Positions 4,222-37,325 of a stretch of 64,000 bases of DNA are shown piece by piece (the stretch's first letter is position 1; every line of letters starts with the position of its first letter). The position numbers and the translations under genes were made by a program. The notes beneath the pieces were generated by a model. That model saw only the letters and a list, made by a program, of their open reading frames with translations, did no database searches and was not told where the DNA came from. Origin of the DNA: Terriglobus sp. RCC_193 (GTDB taxonomy: Bacteria; Acidobacteriota; Terriglobia; Terriglobales; Acidobacteriaceae); contig NZ_JBFUPK010000001.1 of assembly GCF_041355105.1 (NCBI RefSeq), forward strand, positions 806,001-870,000, written 5' to 3'.

Positions 4222-5232
4222 ATGAAAGTTACGATGCGATGTGTTCGATGGCTGCCTGTGCTCCTGCTTGGGGCAGCTCCTCTGTTTGCGGAAACCTGCA
4301 CGACGCAGGCGGCCATGGAACCCGCTGTGCGCGACGGACTGGTACGCGCGGCAGAGAATCTTGCGATCCTGGCAGCGGCGAACAACGCCGACGGCGTGAA
4401 GGCGCAGACGATGCCGCAGTTTGCCAGCGATTTTTCCGGCATCGCAGGCGTCATGCAGCGGTCGACATCGCATCTGCAGGGCGCAAAATTCGCGCCAGAG
4501 ACAGTGTGGTTACTGGATGCCTCGTCGTTGCGGGGTGATGCGCAGGACGCGCAGTTCTTCTGCAGCCTGAATCGCGGCGCTTCACAGACCAGTTTTTTGA
4601 TTCCATCGCTACCGTCGGGTAAATACGGTTTGGTGGTGCTGAATACGGTGGGTGTTGCCGAACCGTGGCAGGTTGCGTTGTTGTTGCGTGAGAGTGCTCC
4701 GGGGCAGTGGCAGCTTGGTGGACTGTTTCCTCGTGCGACAACTGTGGCTGGCCACGATGGACTCTGGTACTGGAAGACAGCGCGAGAGTATGCGGCGAAG
4801 AGACAGGCGTGGAACGCGTATGTGTATTACTCCGCGGCGGAGCAATTGCTGAAGCCCGTGTCGTTTGTTTCGAGCACGCATCTGGATAAGTTGCAGGAGG
4901 AGCGCGGAAAGTCTGCGCCGCCGGCGCTATCTTCAGGGATCACCACGCAACAGCCGTTGGTGATTGGTGATGGTAAAAGTGCGGAAGTGCGTGTGACAGC
5001 GTTCGGCGCGGAGAATGCACCGGCTAACGCGGGGCTGGACGTACTGGCACATGTGAAGGCGGATACTGTGTTGAATGATCCAGTAGCCTCGCGTGCGCGG
5101 AATACAGCTGCGGCGAAGGCAATCGTCGCTGCTTATCCGGAACTGCGCGGCGCGTTCCATGGCGTGTGGATCGTCTCGGAACTGCCGGATGGAAGCACAT
5201 ATGTGAGCGAAGAGCCGATGACGTCGCTCTAG
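4222..5232 (+). CDS. Exported protein of unknown function (about 336 aa)
   Basis: The product starts with a signal peptide (charged MKVTMRCVRW, then LPVLLLGAAPLFA with cleavage before ETC). The ATG at 4222 is preferred over an in-frame TTG at 4204, but the ribosome site is weak (GAGG three bases upstream), so the start is uncertain by a few codons. The mature part is mixed alpha/beta with an aromatic stretch (DGLWYWK, WNAYVYYSAAEQLL) and no catalytic motif that I recognise. The helical N-terminal region and YYSAAEQLL resemble a TPR-like segment. It runs towards glmU, which is convergent 31 bases away. Probably a periplasmic protein of restricted phylogenetic distribution. Confidence 0.75.
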   Translation: MKVTMRCVRWLPVLLLGAAPLFAETCTTQAAMEPAVRDGLVRAAENLAILAAANNADGVKAQTMPQFASDFSGIAGVMQRSTSHLQGAKFAPETVWLLDASSLRGDAQDAQFFCSLNRGASQTSFLIPSLPSGKYGLVVLNTVGVAEPWQVALLLRESAPGQWQLGGLFPRATTVAGHDGLWYWKTAREYAAKRQAWNAYVYYSAAEQLLKPVSFVSSTHLDKLQEERGKSAPPALSSGITTQQPLVIGDGKSAEVRVTAFGAENAPANAGLDVLAHVKADTVLNDPVASRARNTAAAKAIVAAYPELRGAFHGVWIVSELPDGSTYVSEEPMTSL

Positions 5233-5263
5233 GACGAGTTGTCGACTCCGTTACTCGAACTGA

Positions 5264-6700
5264 CTAGGTGTGGGACTTGCGGGCTTGTTTTAGGGCTTCT
5301 CGCTTATGTTTTGCCCAGTCTGGTTTGGTCACCTGGCGGGCTCGTGCAAGCGCGAGTGCGTCTGCCGGGACGTCATCGGTGATGCTGCTTCCTGCGGCGA
5401 TATACGCTCCGCTTTCTACAGTAAGAGGCGCGACCAGAGTTGAGTCAGAGCCTACAAAAACGTCATTACCAATGGTCGTGCGGTGCTTATTCACGCCGTC
5501 GTAGTTGCAGGTGATGACGCCTGCGCCGATGTTGGTGCCAGTGCCGATCACTGCATCGCCGAGGTAGGCGAGATGGTTGGCCTTGGAACCTTCGCCAAGC
5601 GTGGTCTTCTTTGTCTCAACGAAGTTGCCAACGTGCGCCTTTGCACCGATGTGGCTTTCCGGGCGGATATGGCAGTAGGGGCCAAGCTGCGCACCATCGC
5701 CAATGATGGAGTCGGCAAGGATGCTGCCATTGCGAATGAGAACGCCTTCGCCAATGACGCAGTTTTCAATGACAGAATACGAGCGGATGCGGCAGTTCGG
5801 ACCGATTTTTGTTTTGCCCAGAAGCTGCGTGAATGGCTCCAGAATGGTGTCTGCGGCGACTTCGACACTGGCGTCAATGGTGACGGTTTCTGGGCGAAAG
5901 ATGGTGACGCCCTGCGCCATTAACTTTGCGGTGGTGCGTTCGCGAAGGCTGGCGTCCAGATGCATCATCTCTGCGATGGTGTTGGCGCCAAGCACTTCGT
6001 CGACGGAGTCGACCGGGATGGCGATGACGCGCTCCTCTTCGTTGACCAGCATTGCGGCGACATCGGTGAGATAGAACTCGCCGGAGGAGTTCGTGTTTTG
6101 CAGGCGGCCAAGGCGGTCAAAGAGCTTTTGCGTATCGAAGGCGTAGATGCCACTGTTGATCTCGCGGAGGCGCTCCGGCGTGGCCAGCATGTCGTCCGAG
6201 AGCGACTTCTGCTCGATGATGCCCGCAACATCATCGGAGCCATCCTGCTTGCGAAGGACGCGGCCGTAACCCGAGGGGTCTTCCGGGATGGCGGTCAGGA
6301 TGGTCATGGCGGCGTGTTCGCGCAGGTGCATGTCGCGTAGCTCTGCGATGGTTTCCGGGCGGATGAGCGGGACGTCGCCGGAGAGTACCAGCAGGTTCTC
6401 TGGCGGTGCGACTTTGTTGTCCTGGAACCAGCGCTGTACGCATTGCAGCGCGTGACCGGTGCCAAGCTGTTCCGGTTGCAGAACGAAACGCACGCCGGTA
6501 GGAGCTGCGGCTGTTTCCACGCGGTCTGCCTGATGCCCCACAACGACGAGGATGTTTTCGGCGGTGACGGCAGTCCTGGCTACGTCGATCACGTGCAGCA
6601 AAAGAGCCTTGCCGCCGACCGTATGGAGGACCTTGGGGAGAGCGCTTTTCAGGCGGGTGCCTTTGCCCGCGGCCATGATGACGATGCCGAAGTGGTTCAT
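5264..6700 (-). CDS. glmU: Bifunctional UDP-GlcNAc pyrophosphorylase / glucosamine-1-phosphate N-acetyltransferase
   Basis: GlmU makes UDP-N-acetylglucosamine, the precursor of peptidoglycan and LPS, by acetylating glucosamine-1-phosphate and then uridylylating it. The N-terminal nucleotidyltransferase is marked by IVIMAAGKGTRLKSALPKVL at residues 7-26, with the G-x-G-T-R and P-K signature. From about residue 265 a left-handed beta-helix of hexapeptide repeats follows, including HIRPESHIGAKAHVGNFVE and the acetyltransferase region NYDGVNKHRTTIGNDVFVGS. At 478 residues it is slightly longer than the E. coli enzyme because of a Lys/Arg/Ala-rich tail. ATG 6700 is the only sensible start; the ribosome site is poor. 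Cytoplasmic and essential; no operon partner is visible. Confidence 0.97.
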   Translation of the reverse strand: MNHFGIVIMAAGKGTRLKSALPKVLHTVGGKALLLHVIDVARTAVTAENILVVVGHQADRVETAAAPTGVRFVLQPEQLGTGHALQCVQRWFQDNKVAPPENLLVLSGDVPLIRPETIAELRDMHLREHAAMTILTAIPEDPSGYGRVLRKQDGSDDVAGIIEQKSLSDDMLATPERLREINSGIYAFDTQKLFDRLGRLQNTNSSGEFYLTDVAAMLVNEEERVIAIPVDSVDEVLGANTIAEMMHLDASLRERTTAKLMAQGVTIFRPETVTIDASVEVAADTILEPFTQLLGKTKIGPNCRIRSYSVIENCVIGEGVLIRNGSILADSIIGDGAQLGPYCHIRPESHIGAKAHVGNFVETKKTTLGEGSKANHLAYLGDAVIGTGTNIGAGVITCNYDGVNKHRTTIGNDVFVGSDSTLVAPLTVESGAYIAAGSSITDDVPADALALARARQVTKPDWAKHKREALKQARKSHT

Positions 6701-31484: not shown

Positions 31485-31949
31485 TTAGTTTGGTGACAAG
31501 CAACGCATCATAAAGTGAATTCGGTCACGTCCGCCAAGATCGTGAGCGACGTATCGCGCTCCAAAGGAAAGAGTCACGTCGATGGGGCCGGGGTGACTGA
31601 GCTTAATACCCAGGCTGCGGGACTCTTCCGGAATCCCCTTCAAAGATGCAGGATGAAAATCGATGGTGATGTTTGAAAATGACGAATCGTCAATGAGACT
31701 TGCTTCCAGCTGAAGAGTAGAAAAACTTTGATTGATGATTTTGATCGGAATGATCGTCAGCACACCACACGGAGTTGGATCTGGGAGTCGTCCGGAGAGC
31801 ACAACACTGACTCGCGATTCCGGGTTAATCGTGATCGTGATCGGTGCTGTATCTACAGGCTTCCCGTCGCGATGAACGTGATCCTGCGCATTGCTCCAAA
31901 GCGGCACCAGTAGGAATAATGCTGGGACGAACTTTGAGGAGAACGTCAT
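31485..31949 (-). CDS. Small exported protein of unknown function, last gene of the oxidase operon
   Basis: ATG 31949 overlaps the stop of the upstream metallohydrolase by four bases (ATGA), with GAGG four bases before it. The 154-residue product has a signal peptide (KFVPALFLLVPLWSNAQ) and a mature part that looks like a single beta-sandwich domain (TITINPESRVSVVLSGRLPD, VLTIIPIKIINQSFSTLQLE, GPIDVTLSFGARYVAHDL). Short His-containing stretches occur at both ends (DHVHRDGKP; RIHFMMRC). I do not recognise a family. Its coupling to the CehA-like gene suggests an accessory or binding subunit in the periplasm. Confidence 0.75.
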   Translation of the reverse strand: MTFSSKFVPALFLLVPLWSNAQDHVHRDGKPVDTAPITITINPESRVSVVLSGRLPDPTPCGVLTIIPIKIINQSFSTLQLEASLIDDSSFSNITIDFHPASLKGIPEESRSLGIKLSHPGPIDVTLSFGARYVAHDLGGRDRIHFMMRCLSPN

Positions 31950-34339
31950 GCCACCTCGCACTCCGTGGCAATCTTTTCGTAGATTTTGCGAGCATGTTCA
32001 AACGCCGCTGCGGCTTCCGGATGTTCACTTTCGCGAATAAATGGCGACTTTACTTCCCATACTTTATCGACGCATGCACGGCACCATTCTGCGCTCCTTT
32101 TCGAAGCCCGGATAGGCTTGTGATCCACCTGAACGAATGAGGGATGAGTGTGCAGGGAAGGAAGAATGCGAAGGGCCCACCAGGAACTGCGTGTGATGTT
32201 GGCCTTCAATCTAACGATGCGCGGTACGCCGTCGGCCACAATGTTGACGGTTGCAGCAGGCACCCCGTTGACGATCAGTTCGAGTGGTACTTTCTGTGTG
32301 TTGCCTATCCGAGCCTTTTCGATGTCGTAGCCGGATTCGTTTGCTCGGCGCGCCTTGGTCTCTGACGTAAGCTTTGGTTCCAGTCGGGCAGCTACTAATA
32401 CCTCAACATTGATATTTCCACCAGATTCAAGTACCAAGTCGGAATCCGAGAGAGGCTTGCCATTAACTCTGCATTCCAGGATATGGCTGCGTCCATCGCC
32501 GCAGTATTGATGCGGCTTGAATAGACCTGCGATCCAGGATGTATAACCGAGATTACCGTTGGGGCGCGTTGCCAGCTTTACGTAACTACGTCCTGCTCCC
32601 ATGCGGCCGTCACTCATGCAAGGGAAATCCGTTTCTCCAAGCATGGCCATGCGGAAACCGCAGTTAAGCATGTGATACCAGGCGTTGAGTTCGGCAACAG
32701 GAAGACTGTCGCATCCGGAAAGAAAGTCGACATATCCATGAGTTACATCGATGATCGCTTCCTGCGTGCCAATGCTGTCCATGGGAGGGATTTCGTAGTT
32801 CGGAAGCTCCGTTGATTCCACTTCCATTCCGAGTCCACAATGCGCATAGCCGCCGTAGGCACCCTGCGATCTTACCCACTTAAGAATAGGCAGGTTCCAC
32901 GAAGGCCAATCTTCGATCAACGGGGCATCCGGATAGTCCTGCTCTTTGAGTTGCAGTAGAACCAGGTGCCCAGCATGACTTGATGGAAACTGAGATACCT
33001 CGACATCGTAGCGAATGATGCTTTCTGTATCTTCGCGTGTCGTCTGTGGCTGCAGAGTGACGCCGTATGCCTTTTGCAGTTCAGGATGTTCCAGTATTGC
33101 AGTGGGACTTTCAGCATTACCTGAAAAGAATTGTTTTTGGTAATACCAGCTTGGACCCCAGTTAAGAGCATCTCCGATCGTTAAAGCTTCGCCACGAATG
33201 TGGCGAATCAATGTTTCGGGACCCACACCCTCTGTTGGCCTTTCATAGTGAGAACAGCCCGCAGCGTGGATATGTGTGTCGCCCGAATAGAGGCCCCATT
33301 TCGAAGGATCAATCCATCTCTCCAGCTTCACGTCAATCATTGAAGAGGGGCCGTCAATGATTACGGTTTGCATAATGCGTAGGTATTCGGGGCCGCGTCC
33401 ACACTGGATGATGTACTCACCTTCTGGTAAACGTACGGTTTCTCCATCGGCTCGGTAGATCTGTTCCTGGAAAAACAGGTCTGGAGCGAGGCGCATCGCC
33501 TTGGGGGGATAAAGGCGGTTGAGCTTGTCCTTGATGATGAGAGAAGCGAAACAACTACGACCGTTTGTATCGAGAATACGTAACTGGACTTCGTGAGAAG
33601 GAAGACACTCGAAATCAAACTGACGACGTGCAGGATGGAACACACGATCATTCGACGAAGACAGGGCGTTCAAGGAAAAACTAGTTGTGCGTTGTCCGCG
33701 ATCGCGGCTGAATAACTGGACAACGTGATACTCAATTGGAATTTCCGGAAGTGGTATCGTCTGAACTTCAATGCCGCCGCTGACGACCGGTGTTGGTTCG
33801 TACAACTCCATGGCGAACCACATCTTTTCAATCATTGGCCCCTTATTCAGAACATCAGCAAGAGCCGTGCGCTGTGCCGCTCCCTTACTGACAATCTCCA
33901 GGTTGCCGATGGTACGCGTTCCACTCGTGAAGACCAGCGAGCCTTTCTGGACCCTCTCGTTTTCGATACGAACCAGAAACATGCGCCATCCCTGCTCGAC
34001 AAGTTGCCTTGGTGCGTTGCCCGCTGTGATCTGCGGTGCGCCATCAGCACTAAGGGAAAGCTGAGCCAACGTATAGTGGCTGAGTATTTCCTCTGCTTTA
34101 TTGATTGCTGCAACATCGTTGCGTTGCGTCAGGATCACAATCTGCTCTGCATCCGTTGAGCTTATAGGGGAACCAAGATGCGACAGCGCTTGAATTGCCC
34201 GATTCACAGCGGCGAAATAGGGCTGAGTCGGAATCTGTCTAATTTCCGGTTCAAGCGCGCTACAAAAACGACCGCTGGCAAAAGCACTTCCTAGAACCAG
34301 AAAACCTCGACGCGTCAGACCTGATTGCAAGGCAGCCAT
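31946..34339 (-). CDS. Tat-exported CehA/McbA-like metallohydrolase (PHP-type fold)
   Basis: The start is ATG 34339, preceded by a G-rich ribosome site and followed by a twin-arginine signal (SGLTRRGFLVLGSAFASG, RR at residues 10-11). The 797-residue protein has a helical N-terminal third, a beta-rich middle, and from about residue 350 a catalytic domain with YSGDTHIHAAG (HIH at 356-358), the first metal motif of the PHP/CehA family; further candidate ligands are in YGGYAHCGLG, IDVTHGYVDF and LGETDFPCMSDG. Relatives cleave carbamate or amide bonds, but most family members are uncharacterised. It is the third gene of an operon with a multicopper oxidase and a phosphoesterase. Tat export suggests that it folds with its metal in the cytoplasm first. 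Confidence 0.82.
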   Translation of the reverse strand: MAALQSGLTRRGFLVLGSAFASGRFCSALEPEIRQIPTQPYFAAVNRAIQALSHLGSPISSTDAEQIVILTQRNDVAAINKAEEILSHYTLAQLSLSADGAPQITAGNAPRQLVEQGWRMFLVRIENERVQKGSLVFTSGTRTIGNLEIVSKGAAQRTALADVLNKGPMIEKMWFAMELYEPTPVVSGGIEVQTIPLPEIPIEYHVVQLFSRDRGQRTTSFSLNALSSSNDRVFHPARRQFDFECLPSHEVQLRILDTNGRSCFASLIIKDKLNRLYPPKAMRLAPDLFFQEQIYRADGETVRLPEGEYIIQCGRGPEYLRIMQTVIIDGPSSMIDVKLERWIDPSKWGLYSGDTHIHAAGCSHYERPTEGVGPETLIRHIRGEALTIGDALNWGPSWYYQKQFFSGNAESPTAILEHPELQKAYGVTLQPQTTREDTESIIRYDVEVSQFPSSHAGHLVLLQLKEQDYPDAPLIEDWPSWNLPILKWVRSQGAYGGYAHCGLGMEVESTELPNYEIPPMDSIGTQEAIIDVTHGYVDFLSGCDSLPVAELNAWYHMLNCGFRMAMLGETDFPCMSDGRMGAGRSYVKLATRPNGNLGYTSWIAGLFKPHQYCGDGRSHILECRVNGKPLSDSDLVLESGGNINVEVLVAARLEPKLTSETKARRANESGYDIEKARIGNTQKVPLELIVNGVPAATVNIVADGVPRIVRLKANITRSSWWALRILPSLHTHPSFVQVDHKPIRASKRSAEWCRACVDKVWEVKSPFIRESEHPEAAAAFEHARKIYEKIATECEVA

Positions 34340-34376
34340 TTCGGTCCCCCCAAAATTGTTAGTGACAAACGTAAGA

Positions 34377-34409
34377 GGGCCTGTGAAGACGTGCAACGTT
34401 CACGGGCCC
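34377..34409 (-). promoter_or_regulatory. Intra-operon hairpin between phosphoesterase and metallohydrolase genes
   Basis: GGGCCTGTGAA (34377-34387) pairs with TTCACGGGCCC (34399-34409) over 11 bp with one G:U pair and an 11-base loop, in the 77-base gap. It lacks a T run on the minus strand. Differential mRNA stability or partial termination within the operon is likely. Confidence 0.5.
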
Positions 34410-34416
34410 TTATTTA

Positions 34417-35898
34417 CTAATGGATATCCACGCTTTTCAGGATGCTTCCATCGAGACCAACGATTGATAGCTTTAGACTCTTCTGATCCGCTTCGATCAC
34501 ATTGAAGCCATTCTGCTTCGCTTGAAATGTTGAGCGCGTGTAGTTCTTCTGCGTAAAGTCATAAAGAGAGGCGCCAGCTGCTCCGCTTACAAAGAAGTTC
34601 ACGCCGCCGTCTGACTGCAACTCCTGCAGATTGTGATCGTGTCCGCACAGGAAAAGATTGACTCGGTTGCGAAGCACAGGCATAAGACGGTCAATCAGGT
34701 TCTGCTCATCGCCACGCGATGCCGAATATACCTGGTAATGACCGTAAACGATCTTCCAACGGGCCTTGCTTTTAGCGATTTCGGCATCGAGCCATGCCAA
34801 CTGTTGCTGGTATAGCGCCGTATCCGACATCTCCATGGTGTCGATTGCGAAAAATTGAACAGGTCCAGCGGTGTACGTATAGAAGGTTGCCGGCATGTGC
34901 CATGTTTTGCTCTTGTGCGTGTAGATCACTTCGGCTGCAGGTCCGTCGGCCTGCAGATAATCATGGTTACCAAGGGTGGGATAGAACGATATCCCAAGCG
35001 GACCGTAGACCTTCTCCCAGTCATTTTCCCAATGAGGATCATTGGGACTGGAGACTCCACGTGGATAGAAATTGTCGCCAACCGTGATACCGAAATCGAA
35101 AGGGTGTTGCTGGCTGTAGGTGATCATTGTTGCCGCAAGCTGCTTTTGTGCAGGAGAGCCATTGCCGAAATCACCGAAAGCCAGAACGCGGATGGACTTA
35201 CCTTCAGGTGCCACCGCAAAAACAGGTGGTGGTGTGCGAAGGAATGTTGGCAGATTGACCTGCTCGTCGTAGGTGAGCCAATCGTAGGCTTCCTTGCGCA
35301 GTACAGCTTCTCCGGCGGAATCCTTTCGCTGGTGAGCATTTTCGGCGGCTTCGAGAAGGAGCTGCCCATTGACACCCCAGTTCAGCTTGCGGAGATCGCG
35401 CGCTGCTTCAAGAGCCACGTCTGCATTAGTGTCTGTGGCGACCAGATGCTCTAGGATGGCTTGTAGCTGATGGCGCTTCGCGGGCTGTTCCGCAATCTCA
35501 GCATGAACTGCAGAGGGCGAATGAAGGGGACGGTTGGAAGCCTGCAGAGAACGAACCTGTCCGCGGAGACTCTGTGTGAGGATAAGTAGGCGATGTTGCG
35601 CATCCTCATCTTTCGCGAGTTGCGTTGTCAGAAAATCAAATGCCTGCGGCTGCTGGCCAATGTATTTCAGCGCAAGGATGAATCCCGCTTCCGGTTGAGC
35701 GGGAATCTTCTTTAGCGTTGACTGCTGTTCTTCGGCGGGGATATCGGGATGTAGTGATTCCAACTCCTCGAGATAGGGTGCAGGAATCGTACGGGTCAGT
35801 TCAGGAAGCAGGGTCTTACTTTGCTGTGCAAAGACAGAGACAGAACAGGCAGCTAAAGTCAGAAGCAACGTAGCGCGTAATGAATTCATCAGAGGCAT
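34417..35898 (-). CDS. Exported calcineurin-like metallophosphoesterase
   Basis: All five metal-ligand motifs of the calcineurin-like superfamily are visible: GDFGNGS, VGDNFYPRG, GNHDY, YGHYQVY and CGHDHNLQ, spread over the C-terminal half (about residues 240-450). This set matches purple-acid-phosphatase-like/TartA-type periplasmic enzymes. The N-terminal 225 residues are helical and specific to this branch. A signal peptide (LLLTLAACSVSVFAQ) supports ATG 35898; it contains AAC, a possible but weak lipobox. The gene starts five bases after the stop of the multicopper oxidase gene, so they are cotranscribed. It probably hydrolyses a phosphomonoester or diester in the periplasm; the substrate is unknown. 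Confidence 0.88.
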   Translation of the reverse strand: MPLMNSLRATLLLTLAACSVSVFAQQSKTLLPELTRTIPAPYLEELESLHPDIPAEEQQSTLKKIPAQPEAGFILALKYIGQQPQAFDFLTTQLAKDEDAQHRLLILTQSLRGQVRSLQASNRPLHSPSAVHAEIAEQPAKRHQLQAILEHLVATDTNADVALEAARDLRKLNWGVNGQLLLEAAENAHQRKDSAGEAVLRKEAYDWLTYDEQVNLPTFLRTPPPVFAVAPEGKSIRVLAFGDFGNGSPAQKQLAATMITYSQQHPFDFGITVGDNFYPRGVSSPNDPHWENDWEKVYGPLGISFYPTLGNHDYLQADGPAAEVIYTHKSKTWHMPATFYTYTAGPVQFFAIDTMEMSDTALYQQQLAWLDAEIAKSKARWKIVYGHYQVYSASRGDEQNLIDRLMPVLRNRVNLFLCGHDHNLQELQSDGGVNFFVSGAAGASLYDFTQKNYTRSTFQAKQNGFNVIEADQKSLKLSIVGLDGSILKSVDIH

Positions 35899-35903
35899 AC
35901 TTT

Positions 35904-37325
35904 CTAAGAGATAGAGAGAAGTGTCTTGAGACCGCAATCCATGTGCATCTGGTTATGGCAATGCAATAGCGCGGGCCCACTGTTATCAGGCTGAACATTA
36001 AATCGAACTTGTTGAAAGGGAGGCACAACTACTGTGTCTTTCCGGATGCCGGTACATGGTTGTCCTGCAATGCTGGTCAACTCAAACGGGAAACGATGAA
36101 GGTGCATCGGGTGAGCTTCATCGGAGCTATTGAAAAGAGTGATGCGGCAGCGCTCGCCCACGCGCAGAGTCTCTTGTTGAGATGACAGGAGCACCATCGC
36201 CCAACGTTCAAATCCGTCAGAGCCTGAAGGGCGCCGTTCTATGCGGTACGAAAGGTTCTGATTGCACTGTGCTTCATTCTTAGTTCCGGAAGAAAAATGA
36301 AGGTAGTTCCAGGGAGCAGTGTCCGCAGGAGGGCTCCAGATTGGCTTTCCTTTGCGGTCCGCATATTCGATGACAGCACCCATTCCGAGTGCGCGGCGCT
36401 GGTCATCCGGTGAACCCAGAACCCATATGCCAGGAGTGTCCATAACAACGATTGCATCGAGGCGTTCGCCCACACCCAGATCGAGTACTTCAACAAGAGC
36501 TGGCTTGGGGACACGATATCCATCAAGCGCAACTACCAGAAAGCGATGTCCTGGTAGCGATAGCCGCAATTGTTCTGTTGCACTGGCATTCAAAATACGA
36601 AAGAGGATGCGTTCGTTGTTGCGAACACGTATGGGTTCACCTTCCCCCAGAGCTTTGCCGTTGATGGTGGCAGCGCGATACACGATGTCCCATCCATCGT
36701 CAGGTACATCTTCCCCTTCTTCGGATTCGGAGTCGATCTGTAGATGATGCATCTCTTCCAGTGACCGCTCATTGCCTGCGGTATCGAAGACGCGTGGTTC
36801 CCATTCATGACTGGTGATAAAGACTTCTCGATCAAAAGGCTCAGCGTATTCCAGCGAACCAATGACCATTGGAACAAACTGTCCACTATAAGGACCGCGC
36901 GTGAGATCGTGCTCACACATAGCGTGCGAATGTGCGAAATAAAATCCCGGTTCGCTTGGAGGTAGCGTGTAAGTAAGCACGCCTCCGGCCGTTACGCTGC
37001 GACTTTCCTCTTCCGGCGTTCCATCCAGTGCAGCAGACACGCGCAGGCCATGCCAGTGAACAAACTCTTCTTCTCTTGTGTTATTGCAAATCCGAACATC
37101 AGTAAGACGGTCTGGTTGCAAACGAATTACTGCGCCAGATTGATAGTCTGCATAGCTGGTTGTAGTGACAAATCGATTGTTCGCGATTTCAAGAGAAGAT
37201 GGGGCGAGATTCAACATCAACTGTTGACGAGGTGTCCGCTCAGGAGGAGAGAGCAAACGGTCTGCGAGGCAAATCGCTGAACCGGCGAGGAACTGTCGCC
37301 GGCTTGGATTCCAGCTGATAGCCAT
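35904..37325 (-). CDS. Tat-exported multicopper oxidase
   Basis: All four copper-binding motifs are present: HWHG (residues 90-93), HSH (132-134), HPMHLHRF (near 402) and HCHNQMHMDCG (near 453-463), which together bind one type 1 copper and the trinuclear type 2/3 cluster. The residue after the last motif is Leu, suggesting a higher-potential type 1 site without axial Met. The N-terminus carries a twin-arginine signal (NPSRRQFLAGSAI), so the enzyme is probably exported folded. At 473 residues it is a three-domain laccase/CueO-size protein. It is the first gene of a four-gene exported operon. Metal, phenol or amine oxidation are all possible. Confidence 0.92.
   Translation of the reverse strand: MAISWNPSRRQFLAGSAICLADRLLSPPERTPRQQLMLNLAPSSLEIANNRFVTTTSYADYQSGAVIRLQPDRLTDVRICNNTREEEFVHWHGLRVSAALDGTPEEESRSVTAGGVLTYTLPPSEPGFYFAHSHAMCEHDLTRGPYSGQFVPMVIGSLEYAEPFDREVFITSHEWEPRVFDTAGNERSLEEMHHLQIDSESEEGEDVPDDGWDIVYRAATINGKALGEGEPIRVRNNERILFRILNASATEQLRLSLPGHRFLVVALDGYRVPKPALVEVLDLGVGERLDAIVVMDTPGIWVLGSPDDQRRALGMGAVIEYADRKGKPIWSPPADTAPWNYLHFSSGTKNEAQCNQNLSYRIERRPSGSDGFERWAMVLLSSQQETLRVGERCRITLFNSSDEAHPMHLHRFPFELTSIAGQPCTGIRKDTVVVPPFQQVRFNVQPDNSGPALLHCHNQMHMDCGLKTLLSIS

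What the first reader, a model, noticed from the sequence alone, without database searches (positions are those of the whole stretch)
31485..37325. Four-gene operon of exported metalloenzymes with no known joint function
A Tat-type multicopper oxidase, a calcineurin-like phosphoesterase, a Tat-type CehA/McbA-like metallohydrolase and a small beta-rich exported protein are packed with gaps of 5 and 77 bases and a 4-base overlap. All carry export signals. Motifs are seen directly; the families are known individually, but I know of no pathway using this set. A periplasmic route for oxidising and then hydrolysing a copper-, phosphate- or carbamate-containing compound is a hypothesis.
Basis: partly seen in the sequence, partly recalled or inferred. 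Interest (0 to 1): 0.62.

Follow-up and report, generated by a model that had tools for sequence, protein, structure and literature searches.

The report
Carbamate-hydrolase operon with exiled domain partner
Four exported-enzyme genes in a soil bacterium turn out to be two older gene pairs joined together, one of which is a close cousin of the known carbamate-pesticide hydrolase CehA plus a small unnamed protein that looks like one of CehA's own domains copied out into a separate gene, which suggests an overlooked partner protein.

Summary
In detail: four minus-strand genes (31485-37325), gaps of 5 and 77 bases and a 4-base overlap. They are kept as a block: 3 of 10 genus genomes seen carry all four in this order, with differing flanks. 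The block joins two older pairs. (1) A TRAP-like purple acid phosphatase plus a laccase-like multicopper oxidase; 10 phosphatase-adjacent oxidases lie on one side of a tree branch (100/99), 11 unpaired ones on the other. (2) A CehA-type metallohydrolase plus the small protein; this pair recurs in four genomes of three phyla and beside the characterised carbamate hydrolase CehA of Sphingobium CFD-1 (48% identical), where it is annotated only 'hypothetical protein'. The small protein is homologous to CehA's own N-terminal beta domain (profile P=5e-11). Motif INPExRV is in 0 of 8 partnered CehAs, 8 of 8 small proteins and 52 of 53 unpartnered CehAs (48 of 53 with a stricter pattern). So the 'small beta-rich protein' is a detached CehA domain, probably a partner subunit (inferred). 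New variant of known kinds.

The parts
35904..37325 (-). Tat-type three-domain multicopper oxidase, laccase-like; copper motifs HWHG, HSH, HPMHLH and HCHNQMHMDCGL (Leu at the axial position; motif knowledge recalled)
   Evidence: Pfam PF07731/PF00394/PF07732; laccase 4f7k_A 1.2e-22; motif positions
34417..35898 (-). Secreted metallophosphoesterase with N-terminal extension and C-terminal TRAP/type-5 purple acid phosphatase domain
   Evidence: PF00149 1.6e-12; rat TRAP 1qhw_A 2.2e-27; GDFG, GDNFY, GNHD, GHY, GHDHN present
34444..35193 (-). TRAP-like catalytic domain of the phosphoesterase (residues 249-498 of the ORF that opens at 35937)
   Evidence: phmmer alignment
31946..34339 (-). Tat-type CehA-family metallohydrolase, 797 aa, same clade as characterised CehA of Sphingobium CFD-1 (48% identity over 95%)
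   Evidence: NF038032; tblastn to cehA on NZ_CP084404.1; tree SH-aLRT 100
33596..34072 (-). CehA N-terminal beta domain (residues 90-248) that lacks the INPExRV and DLGxR motifs
   Evidence: AlphaFold model; motif counts; alignments
32336..33295 (-). PHP-fold catalytic domain of CehA (about residues 349-668); H356, H358, H458, H500 conserved
   Evidence: VIA-align EndoQ 5zb8_B Z 14.3; residue mapping to CFD-1 CehA
31485..31949 (-). Small exported protein: detached homologue of the CehA N-terminal beta domain, with His-x-His near the predicted mature N-terminus
   Evidence: hhalign P 4e-11 and 5e-11; AlphaFold pLDDT 80; homologue next to CFD-1 cehA
31809..31829 (-). INPESRV motif retained in the small protein
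   Evidence: translation; alignment A4

Best explanation
The locus is one operon-like unit made of two older, separately occurring pairs. Pair 1: a TRAP-like purple acid phosphatase and a laccase-like multicopper oxidase. Pair 2: a CehA-type PHP metallohydrolase and a stand-alone copy of CehA's own N-terminal beta domain. Shown by sequence: the two pairs, the domain homology, the membership of this CehA in the clade of the characterised carbamate hydrolase, and the reciprocal placement of the INPExRV and DLGxR motifs. Inferred: (a) the small protein acts in trans on or with CehA, replacing a surface that the in-protein copy has lost (about 0.5); (b) all act outside the cytoplasm, where CehA cleaves aryl carbamates or related esters and the phosphatase cleaves aryl phosphates, both releasing phenols that the copper oxidase then oxidises or polymerises (about 0.3). 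The confidence below is for the anatomy plus (a); (b) is a weaker rider.
For: Block kept in G000, G031, G266 with differing flanks. CehA-small pair in four further genomes: L037 Opitutaceae, L038 Gammaproteobacteria, L039/G088 Acidobacteriaceae, L040 Alphaproteobacteria, and on the CFD-1 plasmid beside the gene annotated carbaryl hydrolase CehA, with the same 4-base overlap. Homology of small to the CehA N-domain: P 5e-11 against 44 unpartnered CehAs; best of 20 column shuffles 0.013, reversed 0.02; same strand order in two AlphaFold models, by eye; both align to the same macroglobulin domain of complement C4, 5jpm_B 830-936 (Z 7.0) and 830-937 (Z 7.1). Motifs: INPExRV in 0 of 8 partnered CehAs, 8 of 8 small proteins, 52 of 53 other CehAs (48 of 53 with the first, stricter pattern); DLGxR 0 of 8, 8 of 8, 49 of 53; letter-shuffled domains hit either pattern in about 0.2% of trials. 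Partnered CehAs are one clade, SH-aLRT 100. His 453 and 495 of CFD-1 CehA map to H458 and H500. Ten phosphatase-adjacent MCOs lie on one side of a branch, 100/99. Carbaryl hydrolysis is said to release toxic 1-naphthol in the periplasm of Pseudomonas C5pp (PMC8292978, passages).
Against: The 8 partnered CehAs are one clade, so the motif switch is one evolutionary event, not eight, and their N-domain evolves fast in general (stem branch 1.24). The small profile matches six partnered CehAs only weakly (P 0.0019, 52 columns). CFD-1 CehA was purified and characterised after heterologous expression according to the review, presumably without the small protein, so it is probably not needed for catalysis in vitro. 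Among 72,556 plasmid records only the CFD-1 one holds the small gene. Pair 1 was seen beside pair 2 in one genus only; CFD-1 has a TonB-dependent receptor upstream instead, and L037, L039, L040 show no MCO or TRAP-like gene beside CehA in the stretch held. The motif pattern was widened after the first count. No substrate, expression or binding data exist here.
Confidence: 0.55

Rival explanations
1. The small protein kept the beta-domain fold but works on its own as a periplasmic metal-binding protein (copper, nickel or zinc) through its N-terminal His motif, loading CehA or the copper oxidase.
For: After an A-x-A-like site the predicted mature N-terminus reads Q-x-His (an ATCUN-like X-X-His, motif recalled) in 5 of 8 small proteins, and the leader before INPE holds at least two His in 7 of 8. 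A copper enzyme is in the same operon.
Against: Cleavage sites are judged by a crude rule and by eye; an N-terminal Gln may cyclise and block such a site. Of the five pairs outside the genus, four (L037, L039, L040, CFD-1) have no copper oxidase adjacent in the stretch held, and the fifth (L038) has too little upstream sequence to tell. L037 has a single His in its leader.
Confidence: 0.2
2. The unit scavenges phosphate and carbon from a glycoconjugate; CehA removes an acyl or carbamoyl group from sugars rather than from phenols.
For: GH38 alpha-mannosidase-like genes lie next to CehA-small in G088, next to phosphatase-MCO in G035 and G375 and near the sister CehAs in G262 and G254; Oar-like TonB-dependent receptors adjoin the phosphatase-MCO pair in G035, G327, G329 and G321, and G327 adds a GDPD phosphodiesterase.
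Against: Enrichment was not tested, and only chosen neighbours were scanned; none of these genes is in the window operon itself.
Confidence: 0.22
3. The two pairs were brought together by horizontal transfer and have no joint pathway.
For: Outside the three genomes with the block, each pair was seen without the other; operon G+C is 0.50-0.52 against 0.566 for the window.
Against: The four stay together with differing flanks in three genomes of the genus.
Confidence: 0.25

Closest known systems
CehA carbamate (carbaryl/carbofuran) hydrolase of Sphingobium sp. CFD-1 and the cehA loci of sphingomonads
   Same: 48% identity over 95%, same clade, catalytic His conserved, downstream small gene with 4-base overlap
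   Different: Not beside insertion elements or a TonB receptor as in CFD-1, but in an operon with a purple acid phosphatase and a copper oxidase
Other CehA-family proteins of Planctomycetota, Poribacteria, Acidobacteriota, Bacteroidota
   Same: Same domain order by alignment, 35-43% identity
   Different: 52 of 53 keep INPExRV inside the N-terminal domain, and no small gene was found in their loci by profile
Tartrate-resistant (type 5) purple acid phosphatase
   Same: Catalytic domain and the motifs that carry its metal ligands (ligand identities recalled)
   Different: Extra N-terminal region of about 230 residues; adjacent to a copper oxidase
Laccase-type multicopper oxidases (4f7k)
   Same: Three Cu-oxidase domains and copper motifs
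   Different: Belongs with the phosphatase-adjacent oxidases, apart from 11 unpaired paralogues compared

Membership tests
CehA/McbA metallohydrolase (NCBIfam NF038032) | Score above curated cut-off | tested here: met
   179.5 bits against 80
CehA clade proper (carbamate hydrolase) | Groups with characterised CehA | tested here: met
   Clade of 8 with CFD-1 CehA, SH-aLRT 100, quick tree without bootstrap
CehA clade proper (carbamate hydrolase) | Catalytic histidines | tested here: met
   H453, H495 map to H458, H500; HLH 351/353 maps to H356/H358; the review prints 313/315, which are not His in the record, so digits are probably transposed
CehA clade proper (carbamate hydrolase) | Hydrolyses aryl carbamates | not testable with these tools
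   Needs enzyme assay
PHP fold | PHP catalytic domain | tested here: met
   5zb8_B Z 14.3, 224 aligned, 3.5 A; 2anu_D Z 12.5, 198 aligned, 3.2 A
Type-5 purple acid phosphatase | TRAP catalytic domain with metal-ligand motifs | tested here: met
   1qhw_A 2.2e-27 over 241-498; GDFG, GDNFY, GNHD, GHY, GHDHN present; ligand identities recalled
Type-5 purple acid phosphatase | Dinuclear metal centre and phosphatase activity | not testable with these tools
   Needs purified protein
Multicopper oxidase, laccase type | Three Cu-oxidase domains and type 1-3 copper motifs | tested here: met
CopA/CueO copper-resistance oxidase | Score above NCBIfam cut-off | tested here: not met
   TIGR01480 114.4 against 478.95; CueO 66 against 525
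Small protein as CehA N-terminal-domain homologue | Significant profile match with shared motif blocks and strand order | tested here: met

The most novel reading that the evidence does not exclude
The true CehA lineage, including the studied carbamate-pesticide hydrolase, is a split enzyme: its N-terminal beta domain was copied out into a separate exported gene, the in-protein copy lost its conserved motifs, and the exiled copy is an overlooked trans-acting subunit that still follows cehA on the CFD-1 plasmid.
Probability: 0.4. Interest if true: 0.72.

Novelty: new variant of a known kind. Interest (0 to 1): 0.6.

Why it matters
CehA is a studied bioremediation enzyme whose natural role is unsettled. 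If its downstream 'hypothetical protein' is an exiled domain that works with it, expression and engineering of CehA without it have missed a component. The window also gives a setting for a CehA, with a phosphatase and a copper oxidase, that makes its natural substrate testable, and it points to an old phosphatase-copper oxidase pair in relatives of this bacterium.

Tried and rejected
Foldseek alone on the CehA model gave pilin-like and ciliary hits at TM about 0.1 that mean little (job, collected); VIA-align then found the PHP fold. PDB by sequence found nothing for CehA at E 1 and, for the small protein, three hits at E 0.014 or worse. Foldseek on the small protein gave three hits under E 0.001, to macroglobulin-type proteins at TM 0.42-0.45. 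The idea that the metallophosphoesterase beside cehA in Sphingobium EP60837 is the same gene as here was rejected: BLASTP E 0.38. The idea that CehA-small genomes carry the phosphatase-oxidase pair elsewhere was not borne out: of G471-G474 only G471 has a TRAP-like relative (C42, 40%), and it has no oxidase match at E 0.001; G473 has an unpaired oxidase (39%), G472 and G474 weak ones. A search of the order around the alphaproteobacterial G474 found CehA at E 1e-100 in 1 of 96 genomes, itself. The origin of the small protein inside the domain tree is not resolved: it sits on a 1.76 branch. The Fisher test is not used, because the 8 rows are one clade. Rows left out of the motif count: of the 55 loci, seven were not in the alignment (L049, L054, L072, L074, L084, L085, L088); read afterwards, L049, L054 and L072 have both motifs, L074 has DLGxR-type only, its ORF beginning after the first motif, and L084, L085, L088 are cut off at contig ends before the domain (the reasons by inspection); the interrupted gene of G089 was also left out. 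Paper searches: purple acid phosphatase with multicopper oxidase and operon, 0 papers; laccase, acid phosphatase, TonB, Acidobacteria, gene cluster, 0; cehA with istB and orf, one review, of which I saw passages only; other listings seen only as listings; PMC4850150 was searched for six terms without a hit. The primary papers on cehA cited in that review (Hashimoto 2002, Yan 2018, Jiang 2020 and others) were not seen, so absence from print is limited to these searches.

Full report
What is there. Four minus-strand ORFs, MCO 37325-35904, phosphoesterase 35898-34417, CehA-like 34339-31946, small 31949-31485, with gaps of 5 and 77 bases and a 4-base overlap. A sigma-70 consensus scan shows no site in the stretch before the MCO, and it found fewer promoter- and terminator-like sites than shuffles give, so the operon is inferred from packing and conservation. 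Divergent on the MCO side are a miaB-like gene and a bifunctional-nuclease-domain gene; convergent on the small side is a PIG-L gene.

Each protein. The MCO has three Cu-oxidase domains and four copper motifs; the only solved relative at E 1e-20 is laccase 4f7k, and it is far below the CopA and CueO cut-offs. The phosphoesterase's C-terminal half is a TRAP/type-5 purple acid phosphatase (1qhw_A, 2.2e-27). The third is a CehA/McbA-family metallohydrolase; its AlphaFold model (pLDDT 85.8) has a helical start, an N-terminal beta domain (90-248), a PHP domain (about 349-668; EndoQ Z 14.3) and further beta domains. The small protein is a beta sandwich (pLDDT 80.1) without a match in Pfam or NCBIfam.

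Two modules. In a sample of 120 genomes of the family, 34 match the CehA at E 0.001; those at 50% identity or more are the window's own genome, G031, G088 and G089. In 399 genomes of the class 12, the own one included, match a profile of six partnered CehAs at E 1e-150. Of the 10 genus genomes in that sample, the whole four-gene block is in G000, G031 and G266; G254, G262 and G360 have a CehA without the small gene, G327 has only phosphatase and oxidase, and G095, G312 and G413 pass neither threshold. Flanks differ: miaB-like on the MCO side in the window and G031, an epoxide hydrolase in G266; PIG-L on the small side in the window, other genes in G031 and G266.

Phosphatase-oxidase pair. Of 399 class genomes 21, the own one included, have a phosphatase match at E 1e-40. 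Besides G000, G031 and G266 I fetched 13 regions from 12 of them: 6 have the oxidase next door (G327, G286, G375, G329, G321, G452) and 7 do not (G348, G431 twice, G232, G318, G141, G194); of the 7, the G194 stretch ends about 700 bases beyond the phosphatase and one G431 contig is only 4 kb. Six genomes were not fetched (G145, G469, G203, G411, G356, G380), nor a second weaker place in G194. G035, from the family sample, is a further genome with the pair. Gene order flips: phosphatase first in G035, G286, G375, G329, G321, G452, oxidase first in G000, G031, G266 and G327, which are one genus. In a tree of 21 oxidases the 10 phosphatase-adjacent ones are on one side of a branch (100/99), the 11 others on the other. 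Those 11 are what the tool returned as loci, not a random sample; a phosphatase was looked for within about 1.5 kb of them; one more locus, L112, gave no ORF and was dropped. Oar-like TonB-dependent receptors adjoin the pair in G035, G327, G329 and G321, the four that I scanned.

CehA-small pair. A scan of genome contigs of 84,980 species with the CehA gave 55 loci. The small gene follows CehA in four: L037 (Opitutaceae), L038 (Gammaproteobacteria), L039 (Acidobacteriaceae; the same contig as G088) and L040 (Alphaproteobacteria); a profile of eight small proteins run over all loci held finds no other. L038 has only about 500 bases upstream, so its upstream neighbours are unknown; the other three show no MCO or TRAP-like gene in the stretch held. 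A plasmid search with the window CehA matched 3 of 72,556 records, the best being the gene annotated carbaryl hydrolase CehA of Sphingobium sp. CFD-1 at 48.3% over 95%. The next gene there, 'hypothetical protein' with a 4-base overlap, is a small homologue (34% identity, E 1e-22); no other plasmid record holds it. In Sphingobium EP60837 cehA is cut by IS6100 and the small gene is not annotated there. A review says cehA of Rhizobium AC100 has 'an orf downstream' and that of KN65.2 'a short orf downstream' (PMC8292978, passages); whether those are the same gene I could not check.

The exiled domain. hhalign of six small proteins against 50 CehAs aligns small 37-153 with CehA 92-248. Against the 44 unpartnered CehAs P is 5e-11; the best of 20 column-shuffled profiles reached 0.013 and the reversed profile 0.02; against the six partnered CehAs only 0.0019, over 52 columns in the same register. 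Strand order looks the same in the two models, and VIA-align puts both on the same macroglobulin domain of complement proteins at Z about 7, a middling value that alone would prove little. Two motif blocks are reciprocal: INPExRV in 0 of 8 partnered CehAs, 8 of 8 small proteins and 52 of 53 other CehAs (L082 lacks it); DLGxR in 0 of 8, 8 of 8 and 49 of 53. The INPExRV pattern was widened after a first count; with the first pattern the others score 48 of 53, the 8 and 8 unchanged (one search shows the same as 48 of 54 with the interrupted G089 gene counted). Letter-shuffled domains hit either pattern in about 0.2% of trials. G089, an unpartnered relative at 49-50% identity, was left out because its gene is interrupted, but its first piece reads INPEDRV. 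In the tree of 62 CehAs the 8 partnered ones form a group with SH-aLRT 100, next to L094 and L132-L134. So the simplest history is one duplication of the domain into a separate gene in the stem of this clade, followed by motif loss in the parent; the domain tree does not resolve the exact origin.

How it may work. Shown: homology, reciprocity, linkage. Inferred: a trans-acting partner of CehA. Against an essential role, CFD-1 CehA is reported purified and characterised after heterologous expression (review passage). The predicted mature small proteins start with Q-x-His in 5 of 8, which would fit metal binding. For the whole operon I favour unmask-then-oxidise: CehA and the phosphatase free phenols from esters or carbamates and from phosphates outside the cytoplasm, and the laccase-like oxidase oxidises them. 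The review notes that carbaryl hydrolysis makes toxic 1-naphthol in the periplasm of Pseudomonas C5pp. A glycoconjugate role is a serious rival because GH38 genes recur near both modules.

Verdict. Observation confirmed, interpretation partly supported and redirected. The components are known kinds; I did not find the split-domain partner of the CehA lineage or the phosphatase-oxidase pair described in the searches made, which cover an open-licence library only.

Noticed in passing
L092 12228-19500; L131 1-6974: In G031 and G266 the small-gene side of the operon abuts genes that look like an extracellular contractile injection or phage-tail-like cluster (by eye, not scanned).
   Followed up: no
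L118 10790-14386; L162 2207-5776; L093 12355-15906; L133 1107-3746; L134 16748-19000: GH38 alpha-mannosidase-like genes recur beside the phosphatase-oxidase pair, the CehA-small pair and the sister CehAs; enrichment not tested.
   Followed up: partly
L094 8889-11281: CehA of G089 is interrupted by a frame change between two open pieces (pseudogene or assembly error) and no small gene was found in the stretch.
   Followed up: partly
L174 4494-7773: Sphingobium EP60837 pEP2 carries a cehA cut by IS6100, with an unrelated metallophosphoesterase just upstream.
   Followed up: yes
window 31485-37325: G+C of the four genes is 0.50-0.52 against 0.566 for the window, which would fit horizontal gain.
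   Followed up: partly
L143 (G471 C42) around 5117-6118: The Opitutaceae genome that has CehA-small also has a distant TRAP-like phosphatase on another contig, with no copper oxidase match in the genome at E 0.001.
   Followed up: partly
PMC8292978, section on carbofuran (passage): Printed catalytic residues His313/His315 of CFD-1 CehA are not His in the record; 351/353 are, so digits are probably transposed.
   Followed up: yes
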